Shown here one piece after another: positions 35,796 to 60,760 of a DNA stretch of 64,000 nt; the first letter of the stretch is position 1, and every line of letters begins with the position of its first letter. This DNA comes from Callipepla californica brunnescens (Eukaryota > Chordata > Aves > Galliformes > Odontophoridae). The DNA is taken from the NCBI GenBank assembly GCA_023055505.1, contig JALIRH010000062.1, forward strand, positions 1,801,115 through 1,865,114, read 5' to 3'. The notes beneath the pieces are model-generated. The model searched no databases. It was not told the DNA's origin and saw only the letters and a program-made list of their open reading frames with translations. The translations under genes and the position numbers were made by a program.

Positions 35796-35930
35796 AATTA
35801 TTGTAACTCTTGAACTCTTGACAAATAGATACAGATTTTCATAGGAGATTATTTTTCTCTACTACATTTCTAGTTAAAATATTTTAAAAATACCTTAAGA
35901 TGAAAATGTTTTAGAAACAATGTAGTATCC
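35796..35930. other. spacer left of pentanucleotide array
   Basis: AT-rich, nothing recognised. Confidence 0.5.
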
Positions 35931-36120
35931 TTCCCTTCCCTTCCCTTCCCTTCCCTTCCCTTCCCTTCCCTTCCCTTCCCTTCCCTTCCCTTCCCTTCCC
36001 TTCCCTTCCCTTCCCTTCCCTTCCCTTCCCTTCCCTTCCCTTCCCTTCCCTTCCCTTCCCTTCCCTTCCCTTCCCTTCCCTTCCCTTCCCTTCCCTTCCC
36101 TTCCCTTCCCTTCCCTTCCC
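35931..36120. repeat. perfect (TTCCC)38 microsatellite
   Basis: Exactly 190 bp of uninterrupted TTCCC units (GGGAA on the other strand). No imperfect unit is seen. A homopurine/homopyrimidine tract of this kind can form triplex DNA, and the GGG runs spaced by AA on the minus strand suit G-quadruplexes. Perfect length of this size suggests recent expansion and likely length polymorphism; assembled length may be unreliable. Confidence 0.98.
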
Positions 36121-49426: not shown

Positions 49427-49431
49427 CCCCC
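49427..49431. repeat. target-site duplication ccccc, left
   Basis: The same five bases lie directly after the 3' LTR at 55008-55012. Five base pairs is a normal staggered-cut size for several retroviral integrases. Confidence 0.85.
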
Positions 49432-49497
49432 TGTGAAAGACAGAAACTGTTTTCTTTTATTAATTGTCTCAAAGCTTGCTTCGTGAGGCCTTTCTGG

Positions 49498-49697
49498 TGA
49501 TAAGACTCTAAGTGAGAACTGCAGGTTATCTGGGTGGGTGTCACCGTGCCACAGTGCCTCTGCTTATTGTTGTAAAGATAAGCAGAAGTGGGGCCAAGCC
49601 TGTCTTTTTCGGGGTTCGGCTTGGAGAAGCTGATCACTGCAAAAGGCGATAATGCTTGTGCATGGCAATGAAGGTACCACTCCCTGCTGGCTTATCT
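49498..49697 (+). promoter_or_regulatory. cluster of four GATA-factor motifs in U3
   Basis: TGATAAG at 49498-49504, the reverse form TTATCT at 49526-49531, AGATAAG at 49577-49583 and the reverse form CTTATCT at 49691-49697. All sit upstream of the TATA-like box. GATA factors are reported regulators of ENS-1 LTRs; binding here is inferred. Confidence 0.5.
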
Positions 49698-49745
49698 GTT
49701 GGGCCAGGTATGTCACAACAGAGAAAAAAAAAGAAAAAATGGAGG

Positions 49746-49752
49746 ATAAAAG
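49746..49752 (+). promoter_or_regulatory. TATA-like box of the 5' LTR
   Basis: ATAAAAG within 'gaggataaaaggcc', the only good TATA-like element in U3. Transcription would start about 25-30 bp downstream. An A-rich stretch precedes it. Confidence 0.55.
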
Positions 49753-50052
49753 GCCTTCACTAAACTAGCAACTTTGGAGAAGAACTCCCAAGGAAAAAAT
49801 CTTTGACGGAGAACTCCCGAAGAGGAAACGGAGAATTCCCTGAGGGGGGAAACTCTGCAGACGGACCCTGAGGCCTGCTTGCTGTCATCTCCCATCCCCC
49901 GCGGTGACCAGACGAGTTCTCGAGACTACGAACTTCGCTGGATCCACGGTGGTGATTATATCTCTCTTGCTTTCTATCAAGACTCCTTGCTTTTTATCCC
50001 TTTTCTATCGCTCACCTTCCCTTCCCCATATCCCTAAGCAACTAGTAATTGT

Positions 50053-50058
50053 AATAAA
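50053..50058 (+). terminator. polyadenylation signal AATAAA in the LTR
   Basis: Canonical hexamer in the R/U5 part of the 5' LTR, repeated in the 3' LTR at 54902-54907, where it would be used, and again in the leader duplication at 50333. Confidence 0.75.
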
Positions 50059-50166
50059 CTGGTTGGGCTAACATTTGACCCGTTGTGTCTTAATCTCGCC
50101 ATCGGGTATACACATAATCAAAGAACCTCATCTCCCTCCTTTATATTGGAGCGTGACATTTCTTAA

Positions 50167-50184
50167 TGGCGTAGTCGGCAGGAT
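50167..50184 (+). other. primer-binding site 1, tRNA-Ser type
   Basis: TGGCGTAGTCGGCAGGAT is the exact complement of the 3' end of vertebrate tRNA-Ser (ending ..GCCGACTACG-CCA). It lies 8 bp after the 5' LTR, longer than the usual 0-3 bp gap. Confidence 0.85.
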
Positions 50185-50232
50185 AATCTCCATGACTTGC
50201 CTTTCTCCCTCCAGTAAAATTGACATTTTTAA

Positions 50233-50250
50233 TGGCGTAGTCGGCAGGAT
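50233..50250 (+). other. primer-binding site 2, identical copy
   Basis: Same 18 bases as site 1, preceded by TTGACATTTTTAA, which mimics an LTR end (GTGACA). It follows a 22-nt piece that also occurs in gag. Confidence 0.85.
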
Positions 50251-50332
50251 ACCCGACAGTGAGAGTGTTGCCCTTCCAGGTATAGTTGATGTGTGTACCT
50301 TCTGGAGTTGTCCGGAGTGATATTTATTTTTG

Positions 50333-50438
50333 AATAAACTGGTTGGGCTAACATTTGACCCGTTGTGTCTTAATCTCGCCATCGGGTATACACACAATCA
50401 AAGAACCTCGTCTCCCTCCTTTATATTGGAGCGTGACA
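50333..50438 (+). repeat. duplicated R-U5 segment in the leader
   Basis: The last 106 bp of the LTR (50053-50158, AATAAA to GTGACA) reappear here with two substitutions (cacat/cacac and ctcat/ctcgt). A third primer-binding site follows. The junction is at a short shared 'aataa' sequence. Confidence 0.92.
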
Positions 50439-50445
50439 TTTTTAA

Positions 50446-50463
50446 TGGCGTAGTCGGCAGGAT
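50446..50463 (+). other. primer-binding site 3, identical copy
   Basis: Same 18 bases as sites 1 and 2, 7 bp after the duplicated U5 end. The sequence following it (ACCCGACAGCGAGAGTG...) matches that after site 2 with one change, making a tandem duplication of about 210 bp. Confidence 0.85.
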
Positions 50464-50502
50464 ACCCGACAGCGAGAGTGTTGCCCTTCCAGGTATAGTT
50501 GA

Positions 50503-50890
50503 TGTGTGTACCTTCTGGAGTTGTCTGGAGTGATATTTATTTTTGATAATTTAGATGTGTGTGCCTCTCCAGAAAGATCACTCCACATATTGAACCTTAA
50601 TTTTGTGAAATTTGAATCTCTTTTCTTGTGTGTACCTCCTGGAGTTGTGAGGAGTGATAACTGTGATAATTTGGTCATTTAGACGTGTGTACCTCTCCAG
50701 GAAGAATCACTCCGCATACTGAAACTTAGCTGTGTTTGTGGGAACTTTAAGTGAAGTTGATCCTTTTCCTGTGTGCACCTCCTGGAGTTGCAGGGAGTGA
50801 TTATTTGGTAATTCTAACGTGAGCACCTCTCCAGGAAGATCACTCCACATATTGAAACTTAACTGTGTCTTTGGAACTGTTTATGTGTGT
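50503..50890 (+). repeat. three tandem leader repeats with pairing arms
   Basis: Three imperfect units start at about 50503, 50628 and 50770 (about 115-142 bp each). Each reads 'gtgtgtacct.ctggagtt', 'ggagtgat', then 'acctctccag', 'atcactcc' and 'catattgaaactta'. Arm 1 (TTCTGGAG or TCCTGGAG) can pair with CTCCAGAA or CTCCAGGA of the same unit, and arm 2 (GGAGTGAT) with ATCACTCC. The arm order a-b-a'-b' is interlocked. A half unit is also present at about 50290-50325. Confidence 0.8.
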
Positions 50891-51160
50891 GCCTCTCGGG
50901 AGCCTATTAAGTGATTTTGGGACCCGTGAAGATTATTGTGCATTTTCGAAACGTAAGGGTACCTCCTAGCTTAGTCGTGAGGTTTGAAGTTTTTTTTTTC
51001 TCTGTGTGGCTTCACAGAGAAGTGAGAAGTGGTTTACGTATTTGCATTTCCTTTGATCCTCTTTGTCTTTTGCAGGCTCCTCTCAGTAAACAGAGGAGTG
51101 GTCTGAGTATTTGCATTTGTTTGGCTCGAACTTTTTGGATACTTTACCCTCTCTCTTTCT

Positions 51161-51168
51161 CCGTGTAG
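51161..51168 (+). other. candidate splice acceptor just before gag
   Basis: A strong pyrimidine tract (ccctctctctttctccgtgtag) ends in AG at 51167-51168, about 20 bp before the ATG. Another acceptor (gtcttttgcag) ends at 51075. Donor-like CAG|GTATAG sites lie at 50279/50280 and 50492/50493, and AAAC|GTAAGG at 50952/50953. Confidence 0.5.
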
Positions 51169-51188
51169 ATTTTTCTGCATATTGAGAA

Positions 51189-53024
51189 ATGAGCGACAGT
51201 GTAACCACAATGAAAGGTGAAGATGTATTATTTGACCTCTTAGAAAGATATGGTGCCAGACCCTCCTTTACAGGGGTAGACTGGGCACGGCAAAACTGGC
51301 ATAACCTGCAGAGTATCTCAGACCGTATTAATGTCCTGCAGAAAAACGCCCGTACCCGAGCTGGAAAAGGAAAGGCATTTATTTGTGCAGTATTGGGTTC
51401 GGCTCTGGTTGCAGCCATAGAATTCCGTGACCAGCAGCTTAAAGCAGAAAGCCAAGCTTTACAAGCGCTGCAAGAATCAGTTAAAGTAAGTCAGGAATTG
51501 ATAAAAGCTCTGCAAAATCAAATTGTAAACCTAGAAGAGCAATTAGAAAGAGAAAAACATAATTCTGATTTGTTGCAAATGGTTTTAAGGGAAGTGTTAA
51601 TGGGTAAGGATGCTAGTGATAGTAGTGCATCTCAAGAGAAAACTTATCCAAGGGAGGAATTGCAAAGTTTGAAGGCAAATATTGACAAATTAGGAGCTCC
51701 TCCAGCTCAGTTGCGTCCTTTAATAAAAACTGAGTATTCATATGATAATGGCGAGGATTTAGATCCTCAAATGAACATTAAAGAAACCCCTTTCTCTGCT
51801 ACTGAGCTAGCAAAACTGAAAAGAGATTTTAGTCGTTCTCCAAAAGAATCAGAAACGGAGTATGTATGGAGAGTTAGTCTCAGTGGTGGAGACCAAATAT
51901 TGTTAACTGAAAAGGAAGCTGAAGGTTATTGGGGACCAGGAGTATTTTTAACTACTGGTAACAGTCGTGCTCCTTGGTCCCTCACACAGAGAGCTGCCTA
52001 TTGGGCAGGTGGTCTTAACCCTCTAGAAAGGGGAGACCCCCTTGCCATTACTGGGACAGTTGATCAATTAGTAGAAAGCGTTCAAAAGGCTGCTTGTCTG
52101 CAAATGATGTATGATAGAAAGCTGCAGCCACATCATGAATCACCTATGATGATTCCTGTTGATCCTGAGAGGATGACTCCTTTAATTAGGGGGCTTCCTG
52201 AATCACGAAAATCTATAGACATACAACTGCAAGGAAAAATACGGGCTATGCCTCAGGGAGAAAGAATTCAGGCAGCATTAGAAGGAGCTGCAACCCCTAA
52301 CCACTTGCAGTCAGGGTACAAAGCATGGACGTGGGGGGAGGTTGCCCAAGAATTAATCAACTATGGGAGAAAATATGGAGCGGTGATTTCTCCCTCCAGT
52401 AAAATTGAGACAAAGGGAGTAAGGCGTGCAGTGGCCAATTTGACCCCTCCCCTATCTAACCGGGAGAACAACAGATCTAAAAGGGTCTCATTTTCAGTGA
52501 AACCAAGTGGGAGAAATATAAATCATAAACGTAATAGTTTTTGGATGCTGGGCCGACAGAAGGGTATTCCACGAGAATTAATGGATGGATTATCTACTGA
52601 CAAGTTAGAGGAGTTAGTTAATGGATGGCCAAAACAAAAGCCTGAAAGAAGTGATACTCCACCTCCGAGTGCCCCCAACTTTGGAATCAGCACGGGCACT
52701 AGGACTGCAGGAAAACTGATTCCCTCGCCCCTCTCAAGTGAGTGGGGGGGAGGAGGGTGGATGTACATTAGAAAACTTACAACAAAAGGAAACGACCTGT
52801 TAAATACGCTTAGAAGGCTAAGGATGCCTTGGAAAAAGAATACAAAAGTACCACTCACTGGATTATTCCCTCATTTTAACCATATTAACAAGCCCCAAAA
52901 GGGCAAGCCAATGTCTCGTTTTGTCTTACAGAAGACCCCCGTTGGACCTCGACTGAATACAGCTGATTTTAACCATTTGTGTTTTGGGACAAATGTTAAA
53001 GATTTGATCATACTAGAACGCTGA
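51189..53024 (+). CDS. gag-like ENS-1/ERNI-type protein, intact ORF
   Basis: A 611-codon ORF, the only long intact frame in the window. Residues 10-60 form a basic N-terminal part; 64-77 is a short hydrophobic helix; 80-137 is a predicted coiled coil with L84, L91, V98, I105, I112 and L119 in strict heptad spacing. Residues about 180-400 resemble the capsid part of Gag in character. A segment near 450-485 (LGRQKGIPRELMDGLS, LEELVNGW) resembles the Gag tail of bird ERVs, but no CCHC zinc finger is present. The ATG has G at -3. ENS-1/ERNI proteins are about 490 residues; this frame is longer, and a donor-like AA|GTGAGT at 52738 (after residue 516) could end a shorter product by splicing. Function is inferred: ERNI acts in early neural induction through its coiled coil. 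Confidence 0.75.
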   Translation: MSDSVTTMKGEDVLFDLLERYGARPSFTGVDWARQNWHNLQSISDRINVLQKNARTRAGKGKAFICAVLGSALVAAIEFRDQQLKAESQALQALQESVKVSQELIKALQNQIVNLEEQLEREKHNSDLLQMVLREVLMGKDASDSSASQEKTYPREELQSLKANIDKLGAPPAQLRPLIKTEYSYDNGEDLDPQMNIKETPFSATELAKLKRDFSRSPKESETEYVWRVSLSGGDQILLTEKEAEGYWGPGVFLTTGNSRAPWSLTQRAAYWAGGLNPLERGDPLAITGTVDQLVESVQKAACLQMMYDRKLQPHHESPMMIPVDPERMTPLIRGLPESRKSIDIQLQGKIRAMPQGERIQAALEGAATPNHLQSGYKAWTWGEVAQELINYGRKYGAVISPSSKIETKGVRRAVANLTPPLSNRENNRSKRVSFSVKPSGRNINHKRNSFWMLGRQKGIPRELMDGLSTDKLEELVNGWPKQKPERSDTPPPSAPNFGISTGTRTAGKLIPSPLSSEWGGGGWMYIRKLTTKGNDLLNTLRRLRMPWKKNTKVPLTGLFPHFNHINKPQKGKPMSRFVLQKTPVGPRLNTADFNHLCFGTNVKDLIILER

Positions 53025-53918
53025 ATGCACTGTATTTTGGTTGCATAGTATCATGTTTCAGGTTGTTGTGGGTGTGGGTGTTGTCTTTAGGTCTGTTAAA
53101 CTTCACGCTTGGGTTTGAGTTTTCACAGGTTTTGCTGGCTTACTGGCTACTCCCTGCACAGTAACGCCATTCCTTTTGATCCCTTCTTCTACCCCTTTTT
53201 ATCACACTGGTTATGATTTGCATGTAACTCTGCTATGGTGTTTCCAACTTTGTAAAAAAAAATTTTTGGAAATTAACCAAGGGACCCATCTAATGTCTTT
53301 CAGATGTGGTCACAAAAGAAATCCACTGTTATTGATGCTTTTTAGTGTCAGAGAGATGTTTATTGTAACACCAGTCCAGGAGTTCCATCCAAAACATGGT
53401 TGTTGGAAAGTGTCTATGTTTTGTTAAGTGAAGTGTATGTTTCTGTGTATGTTTCTCTAATGTTTTATATTATGGGATATCCTAAACACACTATCCCATG
53501 GAAGTTGTATACACTATAACAATACTTGAACTTGCCAAACTAGTATATATCTCTCTCAGCATTTCAATTGCTTTTGAGATGCTTAAATGACAATTCTGTT
53601 CATACTTAACTATGAAGCAACATGCAGTGTTGCTGTGTGGTGAAGTTATGCCTTCGCTCAGCCTATTAGAAAACATTACATGGCAAATCCACGTATTGTT
53701 GAATTGTACTAGATTACATGCTTTCTGAGAATTAAAATCACAAATGCAACAAGTACTGATAATGGCATTGCAAAACCAGTTAGTGCTTGGTTAGTTGTTA
53801 ATGAATAGGTTGTTTGTGGCAAACTGAATGACTCTAATTGTTGTCTAAAGAGCGATGAACGGTAAAGTTGTTAAACAAATTGCCCAGGGTATCAAACTTG
53901 GAAAGGCCTAGACTCTGA
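53025..53918 (+). other. internal region, pol absent
   Basis: About 0.9 kb between the gag-like stop and the env tail. No protease, RT, RNase H or integrase motif is found in any frame. An 83-codon frame at 53176-53427 has several Cys and could be an env surface-unit remnant, but this is not supported by a recognised motif. The rest is non-coding. Confidence 0.6.
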
Positions 53919-54152
53919 TCTTTTCCCTGGTCTCCGGGTGGCCCATGGGTGAAACGTATTCTGTTTTATCTGTTGTGTGTTGTTGCAACTCTTTTGTTTA
54001 TTCCTTGCATGATTCCATGTTTTATTCAACTTATACAACGTGTTGTATCTTCTATGCACATTGTAACCACTTCAACTGATCATGGACAAGTCCAACAGAT
54101 CAGAGCAACAATTGTAACTAAGCCCAAGAAATCCTTTATAGCAATTGTATAA
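53919..54152 (+). pseudogene. env transmembrane tail relic
   Basis: A frame open from 53919 (after a stop) to 54152 begins with a Trp/Pro-rich stretch. It then encodes a strongly hydrophobic segment (LFYLLCVVATLLFIPCMIPC) followed by a polar tail (FIQLIQRVVSSM...). A membrane anchor with Cys-Cys close to its inner end and a short basic tail is typical of the C-terminus of retroviral Env TM subunits. The ectodomain, fusion peptide and surface unit are missing, so no functional envelope is encoded. A type I membrane peptide by translation from a GTG is unlikely. Confidence 0.55.
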
Positions 54153-54280
54153 CGTTTAACTCCCCCTTACTCCCCCACCCCCTTTTTCCCTACTGCTTCT
54201 TTTTTTTTCTTTCCTTCCCCTCACCACCATGGACGGATGTTTGCGCATCAGTTTCAAGCAATCTTTGAGCCACCGGGTGG

Positions 54281-55007
54281 TGTGAAAGACAGAAACTGTT
54301 TTCTTTTATTAATTGTCTCAAAGCTTGCTTCGTGAGGCCTTTCTGGTGATAAGACTCTAAGTGAGAACTGCAGGTTATCTGGGTGGGTGTCACCGTGCCA
54401 CAGTGCCTCTGCTTATTGTTGTAAAGATAAGCAGAAGTGGGGCCAAGCCTGTCTTTTTCGGGGTTCGGCTTGGAGAAGCTGATCACTGCAAAAGGCGATA
54501 ATGCTTGTGCATGGCAATGAAGGTACCACTCCCTGCTGGCTTATCTGTTGGGCCAGGTATGTCACAACAGAGAAAAAAAAAGAAAAAATGGAGGATAAAA
54601 GGCCTTCACTAAACTAGCAACTTTGGAGAAGAACTCCCAAGGAAAAAATCTTTGACGGAGAACTCCCGAAGAGGAAACGGAGAATTCCCTGAGGGGGGAA
54701 ACTCTGCAGACGGACCCTGAGGCCTGCTTGCTGTCATCTCCCATCCCCCGCGGTGACCAGACGAGTTCTCGAGACTACGAACTTCGCTGGATCCACGGTG
54801 GTGATTATATCTCTCTTGCTTTCTATCAAGACTCCTTGCTTTTTATCCCTTTTCTATCGCTCACCTTCCCTTCCCCATATCCCTAAGCAACTAGTAATTG
54901 TAATAAACTGGTTGGGCTAACATTTGACCCGTTGTGTCTTAATCTCGCCATCGGGTATACACATAATCAAAGAACCTCATCTCCCTCCTTTATATTGGAG
55001 CGTGACA
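54281..55007 (+). mobile_element. 3' LTR of ENS-1-like provirus
   Basis: Same 727 bp as the 5' LTR with no difference noticed. It ends GCGTGACA before the ccccc repeat. The 60 bp in front contain no purine-rich tract; instead a pyrimidine-rich run (54161-54228) and 'gagccaccgggtgg' precede it. Confidence 0.92.
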
Positions 55008-55012
55008 CCCCC
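55008..55012. repeat. target-site duplication ccccc, right
   Basis: Matches 49427-49431. Removing the provirus and one copy joins 'gttagggtgaccccc' to 'tagataggattt'. Confidence 0.85.
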
Positions 55013-59749: not shown

Positions 59750-60760
59750 TAAGATCATGGACCAGATCCTCCTGAAATTTATGCTAAGGCACATGGAAGA
59801 TAGGGAGTTGATCTAGGAGAATCAGCATGGCATCAACAAGGACAAATCGTGCTTGACCAACCTAGTGGCCTTCTATGATGGTCAAATTTCATCTTCATGG
59901 ACAAAGGAAGAGCCACTATTGTCATCTATCTCAACTTCAGTAAGGCCTTTTTTGTGGTATACTACAACATCCTTCTTTTCATGTTGGAAAGCTATGTATT
60001 TGATGGACAGCAGGATCAAATCCAGAGAGTGTTGGTCAATGGCTCTATGTTTGGATGCAGATCAGTGATGTATGATGTCCCCCAGTGGTTAGTTATAGGA
60101 CCAATAATCTTTAATATCTCTATCAGTGATATTGTCATTGGGGCCAATTGCAGGCTCAGCAAGTTAGCAGATGACGCCAAGCTGAAGGGTGAAGCTGACT
60201 TGCCTGATGAATGGGATACAATACACTGGGACCTAGACAGGCTTGATCAGCAGGCCCAGGTGAAACTCATGGGGTTCAACAAGTCAAAATGCAAGCTCTT
60301 TCACCTGACTTGAGACAATCTCCACTATCAGTACCAACTGGGGGATAAGATGATTGAGTGTAGCCCTGCTAAAAAAGACCTGGGGGTACTCTTGGATGGG
60401 AAGCTGTAATGTTACCTCACAGCCCAGATAGCCAGCCATATCGTGGGCTGCATCAAAATAAGCCTGGCCAGCAGGTTGAAGGAGGTGATCCTGCCCCTCT
60501 ACTCTGCATAGGTGAGGCCTGAAGTACTGCATCCAGATGTGGCACTCTTAGTACAGGACAGACACAGACCTGTTGGAGTGTGTCCAGAGGAGCACCACAA
60601 AAATGCTCCAAGGAATGGAACACCTCTCCTGAGAGGACAAGCTGAATATGCTGGGGCTGATCAGCATGGAGAAGAGAAGGCTCCACGGTGACCTGTGAGC
60701 AGCCTTTTGGTATCCAAAGGGGAGCTACAGGATAGAAGGGGACAGACTCTTCAACAGGAA
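59750..60760 (+). mobile_element. CR1 LINE, RT and ORF2 tail
   Basis: The frame at 59897-60313 encodes the RT palm: 'MDKGRATIVIYLNFSKAF' (catalytic Asp replaced by Asn), then 'VPQWLVIGPIIFNISI' (motif B) and 'CRLSKLADDAKL' with the intact A-D-D box, then 'LDRLDQQAQ'. Broken frames continue through 'KKDLGVLLDGKL' to the ORF2 tail at about 60745. The terminal 3' UTR is lost. Confidence 0.92.

What the first reader, a model, noticed from the sequence alone, without database searches (positions are those of the whole stretch)
49432..55007. Very young ENS-1/ERNI-like provirus with intact gag-like ORF and no pol
The LTRs look identical over 727 bp, a perfect 5-bp duplication flanks the element, and a 611-codon ORF is intact while pol is absent. 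A non-autonomous element this fresh must have been copied with enzymes supplied by another element, and the kept ORF suggests selection or very recent origin. The protein character fits the chicken ENS-1/ERNI family.
Basis: partly seen in the sequence, partly recalled or inferred. Interest (0 to 1): 0.85.

Follow-up and report, generated by a model that had tools for sequence, protein, structure and literature searches.

The report
Young mosaic pol-less bird retrovirus copy
A recently inserted, enzyme-less retrovirus copy in a gamebird genome (apparently not the chicken) kept an open structural-protein gene and is a patchwork of at least two related lineages, while relatives with intact enzyme genes in the same genome could have supplied what it lacks.

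Summary
In detail: two 727-bp LTRs without a difference, a 5-bp target duplication, an open 611-codon gag-like ORF, no pol. Kinship to ENS-1/ERNI also holds (73% protein identity), but as a cousin: the genome looks like a non-chicken galliform, the HP1 box is absent (GLSTDKLE in 49 of 49 open copies), and the ORF runs about 115 codons past the usual gag end, through a pol stub into a new tail. The youth is ordinary: 11 of 13 LTR pairs examined are identical.

Beyond the finding: (1) the copy is a mosaic. Gag codons 1-190 match a pol-bearing element (4 of 570 sites differ); LTRs and 3' gag match a pol-less subfamily whose codons 48-215 differ by 23%. (2) Two relatives with 98%-identical LTRs encode uninterrupted 1039-aa pol. 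(3) A Montezuma quail protein has the same fusion ORF and tail, so this Gag-only lineage is probably older than the insertion. (4) Gag dN/dS is about 0.25-0.27.

Best reading: a Gag-encoding parasite of an ENS-3-like retrovirus, copied with enzymes supplied in trans and reshuffled by co-packaging. Trans supply and template switching are inferred, not shown.

The parts
49427..49431 (.). target-site duplication CCCCC, 5' copy
49432..50158 (+). 5' LTR, identical to 3' LTR; 10 deleted columns and 2 substitutions not seen in the 12 other 5' LTRs compared
50159..51188 (+). untranslated leader
50167..50184 (+). putative primer-binding site TGGCGTAGTCGGCAGGAT, first of three copies (tRNA-Ser assignment recalled, not tested)
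50233..50250 (+). second copy of the 18-mer
50333..50438 (+). internal copy of the last 106 bp of the LTR, 98% identical
50446..50463 (+). third copy of the 18-mer
51189..53024 (+). open 611-codon ORF: Gag + pol-start stub + novel tail
51189..51833 (+). foreign segment (B-type Gag N-terminus). 51331-51833: 132 of 132 A/B diagnostic columns are B (gap columns counted). 51189-51330 has no A/B diagnostic column; it is assigned by its match to the pol-bearing C90 element (1 of 141 sites differs)
51372..51605 (+). predicted long helix (coiled coil), codons 62-139
51795..52397 (+). capsid-like region, codons 203-403; weak structural match to foamy, Rous sarcoma, MLV, HML2 and HTLV-1 capsids
52587..52610 (+). 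GLSTDKLE, the place of the ENS-1 HP1 box GLPTVRLE (box absent)
52719..52808 (+). stub of about 30 codons of the pol start, in frame with gag
52801..52807 (+). pol deletion junction (about 2.95 kb missing relative to the pol-bearing C38 relative)
52812..53021 (+). tail, codons 542-611; its first part is homologous in DNA to the 3' end of pol but gives no protein match to it
53773..54149 (+). remnant of the 3' end of env; 53949-54152 still open
54281..55007 (+). 3' LTR
55008..55012 (.). target-site duplication CCCCC, 3' copy

Best explanation
This is a non-autonomous provirus of the ENS (ENS-1/ENS-3, Soprano-like) group in a galliform bird other than the chicken, probably a New World quail. An ENS-3-like retrovirus with gag, pol and env lost most of pol and env in an ancestor, and a frame change before the gag stop joined gag to a pol stub and a new tail. 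The resulting Gag-only RNA is packaged and reverse-transcribed by pol from intact relatives (inferred), and its Gag takes part in particle assembly (inferred). Co-packaging lets reverse transcriptase switch templates, so pol-less elements exchange segments with pol-bearing ones. The window's copy, or its recent source, got its first ~215 Gag codons that way and then inserted recently. Shown: identical LTRs, target duplication, open ORF, pol deletion, mosaic structure, pol-bearing relatives with near-identical LTRs, low dN/dS of gag. Inferred: trans supply, co-packaging, template switching rather than gene conversion.
For: LTRs 727/727 identical. Two 8.7-kb elements with 98%-identical LTRs each encode an uninterrupted 1039-aa pol with protease, RT, RNase H and integrase domains; their own LTR pairs differ by 0 and 1 substitutions. 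Mosaic: codons 48-215 differ from L018 and L013 at 1 of 504 sites each and from pol-less copy L034 at 111 of 477; codons 370-541 differ from L029 at 4 of 516 and from L018 at 33 of 516; Fisher p = 1.7e-32 for L018 against L034; 132 of 132 diagnostic columns, gap columns counted. Gag start against the pol-bearing C90 element: 1 of 141 and 3 of 429 differences. 65 of 69 other gag loci span the same pol-deletion junction. 49 of 70 gag copies examined are uninterrupted full length, the window included. dN/dS codons 1-494: 0.267 (bootstrap 0.20-0.37) in 32 A-type copies, 0.244 (0.18-0.33) in 17 B-type. Cyrtonyx P0001 has the same fusion, 615 aa; tail 62 of 70 identical.
Against: No expression, particle or mobilisation evidence. 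Gag dN/dS may partly reflect selection on pol-bearing lineages from which segments were imported; for the tail, which exists as this frame in the pol-less lineage, it is 0.54 (0.22-1.51) and 0.44 (0.21-1.22), not clearly below 1. 21 of 70 copies failed the full-length-open criterion (interrupted, shorter, or not alignable from the same ATG). The window LTR's deletion is not in the other 12 elements compared, so its direct source was not found. Gene conversion could also make the mosaic. Of the three tree-based tests two gave no support and were unusable.
Confidence: 0.8

Rival explanations
1. The mosaic arose after insertion by gene conversion from another genomic copy, not by template switching during reverse transcription.
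For: The main foreign stretch is one block of about 0.6-0.8 kb at the gag start, a size compatible with conversion tracts; many possible donor copies exist.
Against: The C80 copies L010-L012 share the combination of A-type LTR and B-type Gag start, so it moved as a unit or arose more than once; two of them are a tandem pair and all three lie on one contig, so they may be one event. A further segment, 53182-53431, is also non-A (98% to L013, 91-94% to A copies).
Confidence: 0.2
2. The ORF is open only because the insertion is recent and copies come from intact masters; Gag of pol-less elements has no role.
For: LTRs show no divergence; some copies carry interrupted or shorter ORFs; the tail's dN/dS is not clearly below 1.
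Against: dN/dS of gag about 0.25 among pol-less copies. The env remnant is stopped, split or not found in 17 of 29 other loci, and 14 of those 17 keep gag open (many share one history, so they are not independent). The fusion ORF is open in Cyrtonyx too.
Confidence: 0.2
3. The ORF is a host gene in the manner of chicken ERNI, kept for embryonic function.
For: Same protein family; chicken ERNI is reported to control Sox2 timing through HP1 gamma (passages of PMC3958431).
Against: HP1 box absent in 49 of 49 open copies; dozens of similar copies and a very young insertion; orthology was not examined.
Confidence: 0.05

Closest known systems
Chicken ENS-1/ERNI (non-autonomous ENS element)
   Same: Homologous Gag (73% to P0010), coiled-coil N-terminus, PLIKTEY at 177, no pol, young multi-copy family
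   Different: No HP1 box (GLSTDKLE), ESVKVSQ instead of ESVKVTQ, 611-codon ORF with pol stub and tail instead of 490 aa, mosaic N-terminus, apparently another species
ENS-3 / Soprano (pol-bearing ENS element of chicken, per PMC10996621)
   Same: Pol-bearing relatives in this genome share the LTR (98%) and gag and carry a full pol; they fit this role
   Different: The window's copy lacks pol and most of env; no chicken ENS-3 DNA was available for direct comparison
Cyrtonyx montezumae LOC136054465 (P0001, 615 aa)
   Same: 89% identical over the whole ORF, including pol stub and tail
   Different: Another species; DNA and flanking LTRs not seen
ONSEN recombinants in Arabidopsis (PMC5668417, abstract seen)
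   Same: Young LTR elements that are recombinants of family members
   Different: Plant retrotransposon; observed during transposition bursts

Membership tests
ENS-1/ERNI (chicken) | Homologous Gag protein | tested here: met
   73% to P0010 over 79% of the query; P0010 is unnamed in the database and taken as chicken ENS-1 from motif positions
ENS-1/ERNI (chicken) | SUMO site 1 PLIKTEY near residue 180 | tested here: met
   PLIKTEY at 177
ENS-1/ERNI (chicken) | SUMO site 2 ESVKVTQ at 96 | tested here: inconclusive
   ESVKVSQ at 96, one residue differs
ENS-1/ERNI (chicken) | HP1 box GLPTVRLE near 469 | tested here: not met
   GLSTDKLE at 467-474; same in 49 of 49 open copies
ENS-1/ERNI (chicken) | 490-aa ORF | tested here: not met
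   611 codons, with fused pol stub and tail; PMC3958431 also lists other lengths among chicken copies, up to 627 aa
ENS-1/ERNI (chicken) | Coiled coil at 92-126 | tested here: met
   predicted helix 62-139, block pLDDT up to 92, in a model of low overall confidence
ENS-1/ERNI (chicken) | LTR homologous to the chicken ENS-1 LTR and active in ES cells | not testable with these tools
   no chicken DNA and no expression data on hand
ENS group in the wider sense (ENS-1/ENS-3, Soprano) | ENS-type Gag with pol-bearing relatives sharing the LTR | tested here: met
Class III (ERV-L/spuma-like) retroviruses | Pol closest to that class | tested here: inconclusive
   pol of the C38 relative: best PDB rows are protease/RT/RNase H chains read as foamy virus by recall (184 bits), against 177 bits for 4mh8, read as XMRV/MLV type by recall; no tree was made; PMC10996621 places ENS-3 as sister to ERV-L
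Retroviral Gag | Capsid fold | tested here: inconclusive

The most novel reading that the evidence does not exclude
A Gag-only retroviral parasite lineage has persisted across the split of gamebird genera. It keeps a gag-tail fusion ORF under selection and repeatedly renews its Gag N-terminal coiled-coil module, which exists as sharply divergent types (about 23% DNA difference), by recombining with pol- and env-bearing helper viruses. The HP1 box that gave chicken ERNI its host role is absent here and appears to be a derived, phasianid feature.
Probability: 0.45. Interest if true: 0.6.

Novelty: new variant of a known kind. Interest (0 to 1): 0.45.

Why it matters
ENS-1/ERNI is cited as a retroviral Gag used by the chick embryo. 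These data show the same family recently active in another gamebird genome without the HP1 box. Among 51 listed relatives with a readable motif, valine at the PxVxL position occurs in 10; the 8 of these with a named organism are phasianids (family membership recalled). That makes the origin of the host function testable by comparing species. If the inferences hold, the family is also a vertebrate case of pol-less elements that keep gag and swap segments with pol-bearing relatives.

Tried and rejected
Chicken origin: judged unlikely, not formally excluded. In one search the lysozyme exon aligns over 53 residues; the three top rows (1hep, guinea fowl 1fbi and 1hhl) match it throughout except the first letter. 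1hep is labelled hen lysozyme and is an engineered mutant by recall; wild-type hen (132l) ranks lower (115.4 against 116.9 bits for 1fbi), its two differing residues being recalled. Against the quail reading: the bobwhite row scores 115.9, below guinea fowl, and its alignment was not shown. For it: the best Gag hit is Cyrtonyx (89%), with Numida at 73%. The species is not settled.

Tree-based clade tests: the quick tree was poorly searched. Two of three tests found the constrained tree better than the free one (p 0.79 and 0.51), which gives no support; the third gave p = 0.034 against all 17 B-type rows forming one clade in the 3' segment. I rely on site counts instead.

Whole-ORF model: mean pLDDT 56; its searches mostly matched the long helix. 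The capsid piece modelled alone gave pLDDT 71; Foldseek found nothing below E 1 and the second look only low Z.

tRNA-Ser as primer: recalled; the genome search to test it did not complete. Rfam on the window: 0 matches. Paper searches: (cENS; ENS-1 with guinea fowl; ERNI, HP1, Phasianidae, quail, retrovir; at least 4 of 5) returned none; (at least two of endogenous retrovirus, New World quail, Odontophoridae) found 33 papers, 10 listed, none about ENS by title. Pol deletion junction: the 6-mer ACATGC lies at both ends of the missing stretch in the pol-bearing relative (read), suggestive only.
Full report
Observation. The element spans 49432-55007. The two 727-bp LTRs do not differ at any position and are flanked by CCCCC. 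With the substitution rate printed in PMC2329609 (7.5e-4 per site per million years, passage), zero differences in 727 sites gives an upper 95% limit of about 2.75 million years (my arithmetic: 3/(2 x 727 x 7.5e-4)). "Very young" is right, but an age of thousands of years is not shown.

Family context. The genome (1.085 Gb, 321 contigs) holds at least 40 full-length close LTRs, the window's two included, and at least 72 gag places; the tool says such counts are lower bounds. Of 13 LTR pairs compared, the window's included and all taken from the 40 best LTR hits, so biased to young copies, 11 have no substitution and 2 have one; 13 of 13 show a 5-bp duplication. The window's youth is therefore ordinary. 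Its LTR carries 10 deleted columns and two substitutions not seen in the other 12 elements' 5' LTRs.

Species. A lysozyme exon, fetched as 211 bases, aligns over 53 residues and matches guinea fowl lysozyme apart from the first letter, probably a start-codon reading; an engineered hen mutant (1hep, recalled as such) ties with it, wild-type hen ranks lower, and so does bobwhite. The best Gag relative is a 615-aa Cyrtonyx montezumae protein at 89%; Coturnix is at 76%, Numida at 73% and the ENS-1-like P0010 at 73% (226 found, 120 listed). A New World quail is the likeliest host; this is inference.

Anatomy. The leader has three copies of TGGCGTAGTCGGCAGGAT and a 106-bp copy of the LTR end; in the 1.5 kb before gag of 30 loci, the window's own L009 included, exact 18-mers number 0 (2 loci), 1 (18), 2 (7) or 3 (3). 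The 611-codon ORF aligns to the gag of pol-bearing relatives, then runs in frame into about 30 codons of the pol start, and then, after a deletion of about 2.95 kb, into a tail. In the pol-bearing C38 relative the gag stop and the pol start overlap as TAATG. 65 of 69 other gag loci span the same junction; L072 and L079-L081 do not. Downstream is a remnant of env: 76 aligned residues of the 3' end are 97% identical to the env frame of a pol-bearing element, and a stretch before it is 39% identical.

Pol-bearing relatives. Two 8.7-kb elements (contigs C2 and C38) have LTRs 98% identical to the window's. Each encodes a 1039-aa pol with protease, RT, RNase H and integrase domains. The C2 element also has an env frame with a TLV_coat match, E = 2.1e-11; env was not looked for in C38. 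They are plausible enzyme donors. That they did serve is inference.

Mosaic. At 132 of 132 columns that separate the A from the B group in 51331-51833, gap columns counted, the window is B (7 A, 6 B and 6 C loci chosen by me from the 29 with long flanks). Downstream most informative columns are A; B columns lie at 52128-52282 (2), 52782-52808 (2) and 53266 (1), and at 53665 (29) and 53891 (6), these last two being insertion columns at one window position each. Upstream there are only 4 informative columns (1 B, 3 A at 51171-51178), so the 5' breakpoint is loosely placed. Distances agree: codons 48-215 differ from L018 and L013 at 1 of 504 sites and from A copies by about 23%; codons 370-541 differ from L029 at 4 of 516 and from L018 at 33 of 516. 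Fisher tests for L018 and L013 against L034 give p = 1.7e-32 and 3.6e-32. The Gag start differs from the pol-bearing C90 element at 1 of 141 and 3 of 429 sites; the LTRs of C90 were not examined. Among 25 open copies with long flanks (the window and 24 of L010-L038; five not open were skipped), four combine an A-type LTR with a B-type Gag start: the window and L010-L012 on C80. The 8 others with an A-type LTR have an A-type Gag start. The 13 others with a B-type Gag start have a diverged U3 (12) or none found (1).

Selection. 70 of the 72 gag places were examined, the window included; 49 are uninterrupted full length, and 21 fail that criterion (interrupted, shorter, or not alignable from the same ATG). 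Pairwise dN/dS for codons 1-494 is 0.267 (bootstrap 0.20-0.37) in 32 A-type copies and 0.244 (0.18-0.33) in 17 B-type. For the tail it is 0.54 and 0.44, with intervals that include 1. In 29 other loci the env remnant is open in 12, has a stop in 15, is split in 1 and was not found in 1; 14 of these 17 keep gag open. The broken states are partly shared by descent, so they are not independent. The tail is 62 of 70 identical in Cyrtonyx, against 250 of 279 for codons 216-494.

HP1 box. The paper on ENS-1 (PMC3958431, passages seen) gives GLPTVRLE as the HP1 box. The window has GLSTDKLE, as do 49 of 49 open copies. Of 120 listed relatives, 51 have a readable motif; 10 have V at that position: Excalfactoria 3, Tympanuchus 2, Lagopus 1, Centrocercus 1, Phasianus 1, and 2 without a named organism; 9 of the 10 also keep the P. 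The other 41 lack the V; they include Cyrtonyx 3, Numida 1, Coturnix 1, Tympanuchus 2 and Excalfactoria 2. So the box looks derived and polymorphic within phasianids; no tree was made to prove the direction.

Verdict. The better description is a mosaic, Gag-only member of the ENS group in a gamebird that is apparently not the chicken, most likely moved by enzymes of pol-bearing relatives in the same genome.

Noticed in passing
L003:2368-3627 (minus strand): The C2 pol-bearing relative has an open env frame of at least 419 aa with a TLV_coat match, while pol of its sister C38 scores highest with chains read as foamy virus by recall: a possible env exchange.
   Followed up: partly
L039:3480-3620 (minus strand): gag stop and pol start overlap as TAATG in the pol-bearing relative, which would suit stop-start reinitiation.
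   Followed up: no
50159-50546: Leader with three copies of the putative primer-binding site; exact copies vary from 0 to 3 among 30 loci.
   Followed up: partly
G000 C80:1030005-1036516, C3:1310245-1317082, C112:932866-941159: Gag copies 4.5-5.0 kb apart on one strand suggest tandem elements sharing LTRs.
   Followed up: no
window 35929-36120: Perfect (CCTTC) array, 38.4 copies.
   Followed up: no
window 59879-60313: Reverse transcriptase piece, LINE-like by recall (RVT_1, E = 1.2e-5, below Pfam's cut-off); nine other stretches sent had no Pfam hit.
   Followed up: no
one search hit list: Relatives of this Gag at about 45-60% identity occur in eagles, owls, cranes, emu and songbirds, although PMC3362752 calls the ENS family present only in Galliform species (passage).
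   Followed up: no
G000 C60:367647-380203: An ENS LTR pair with 0 differences spans 12.6 kb; part of its interior was only listed for ORFs.
   Followed up: no
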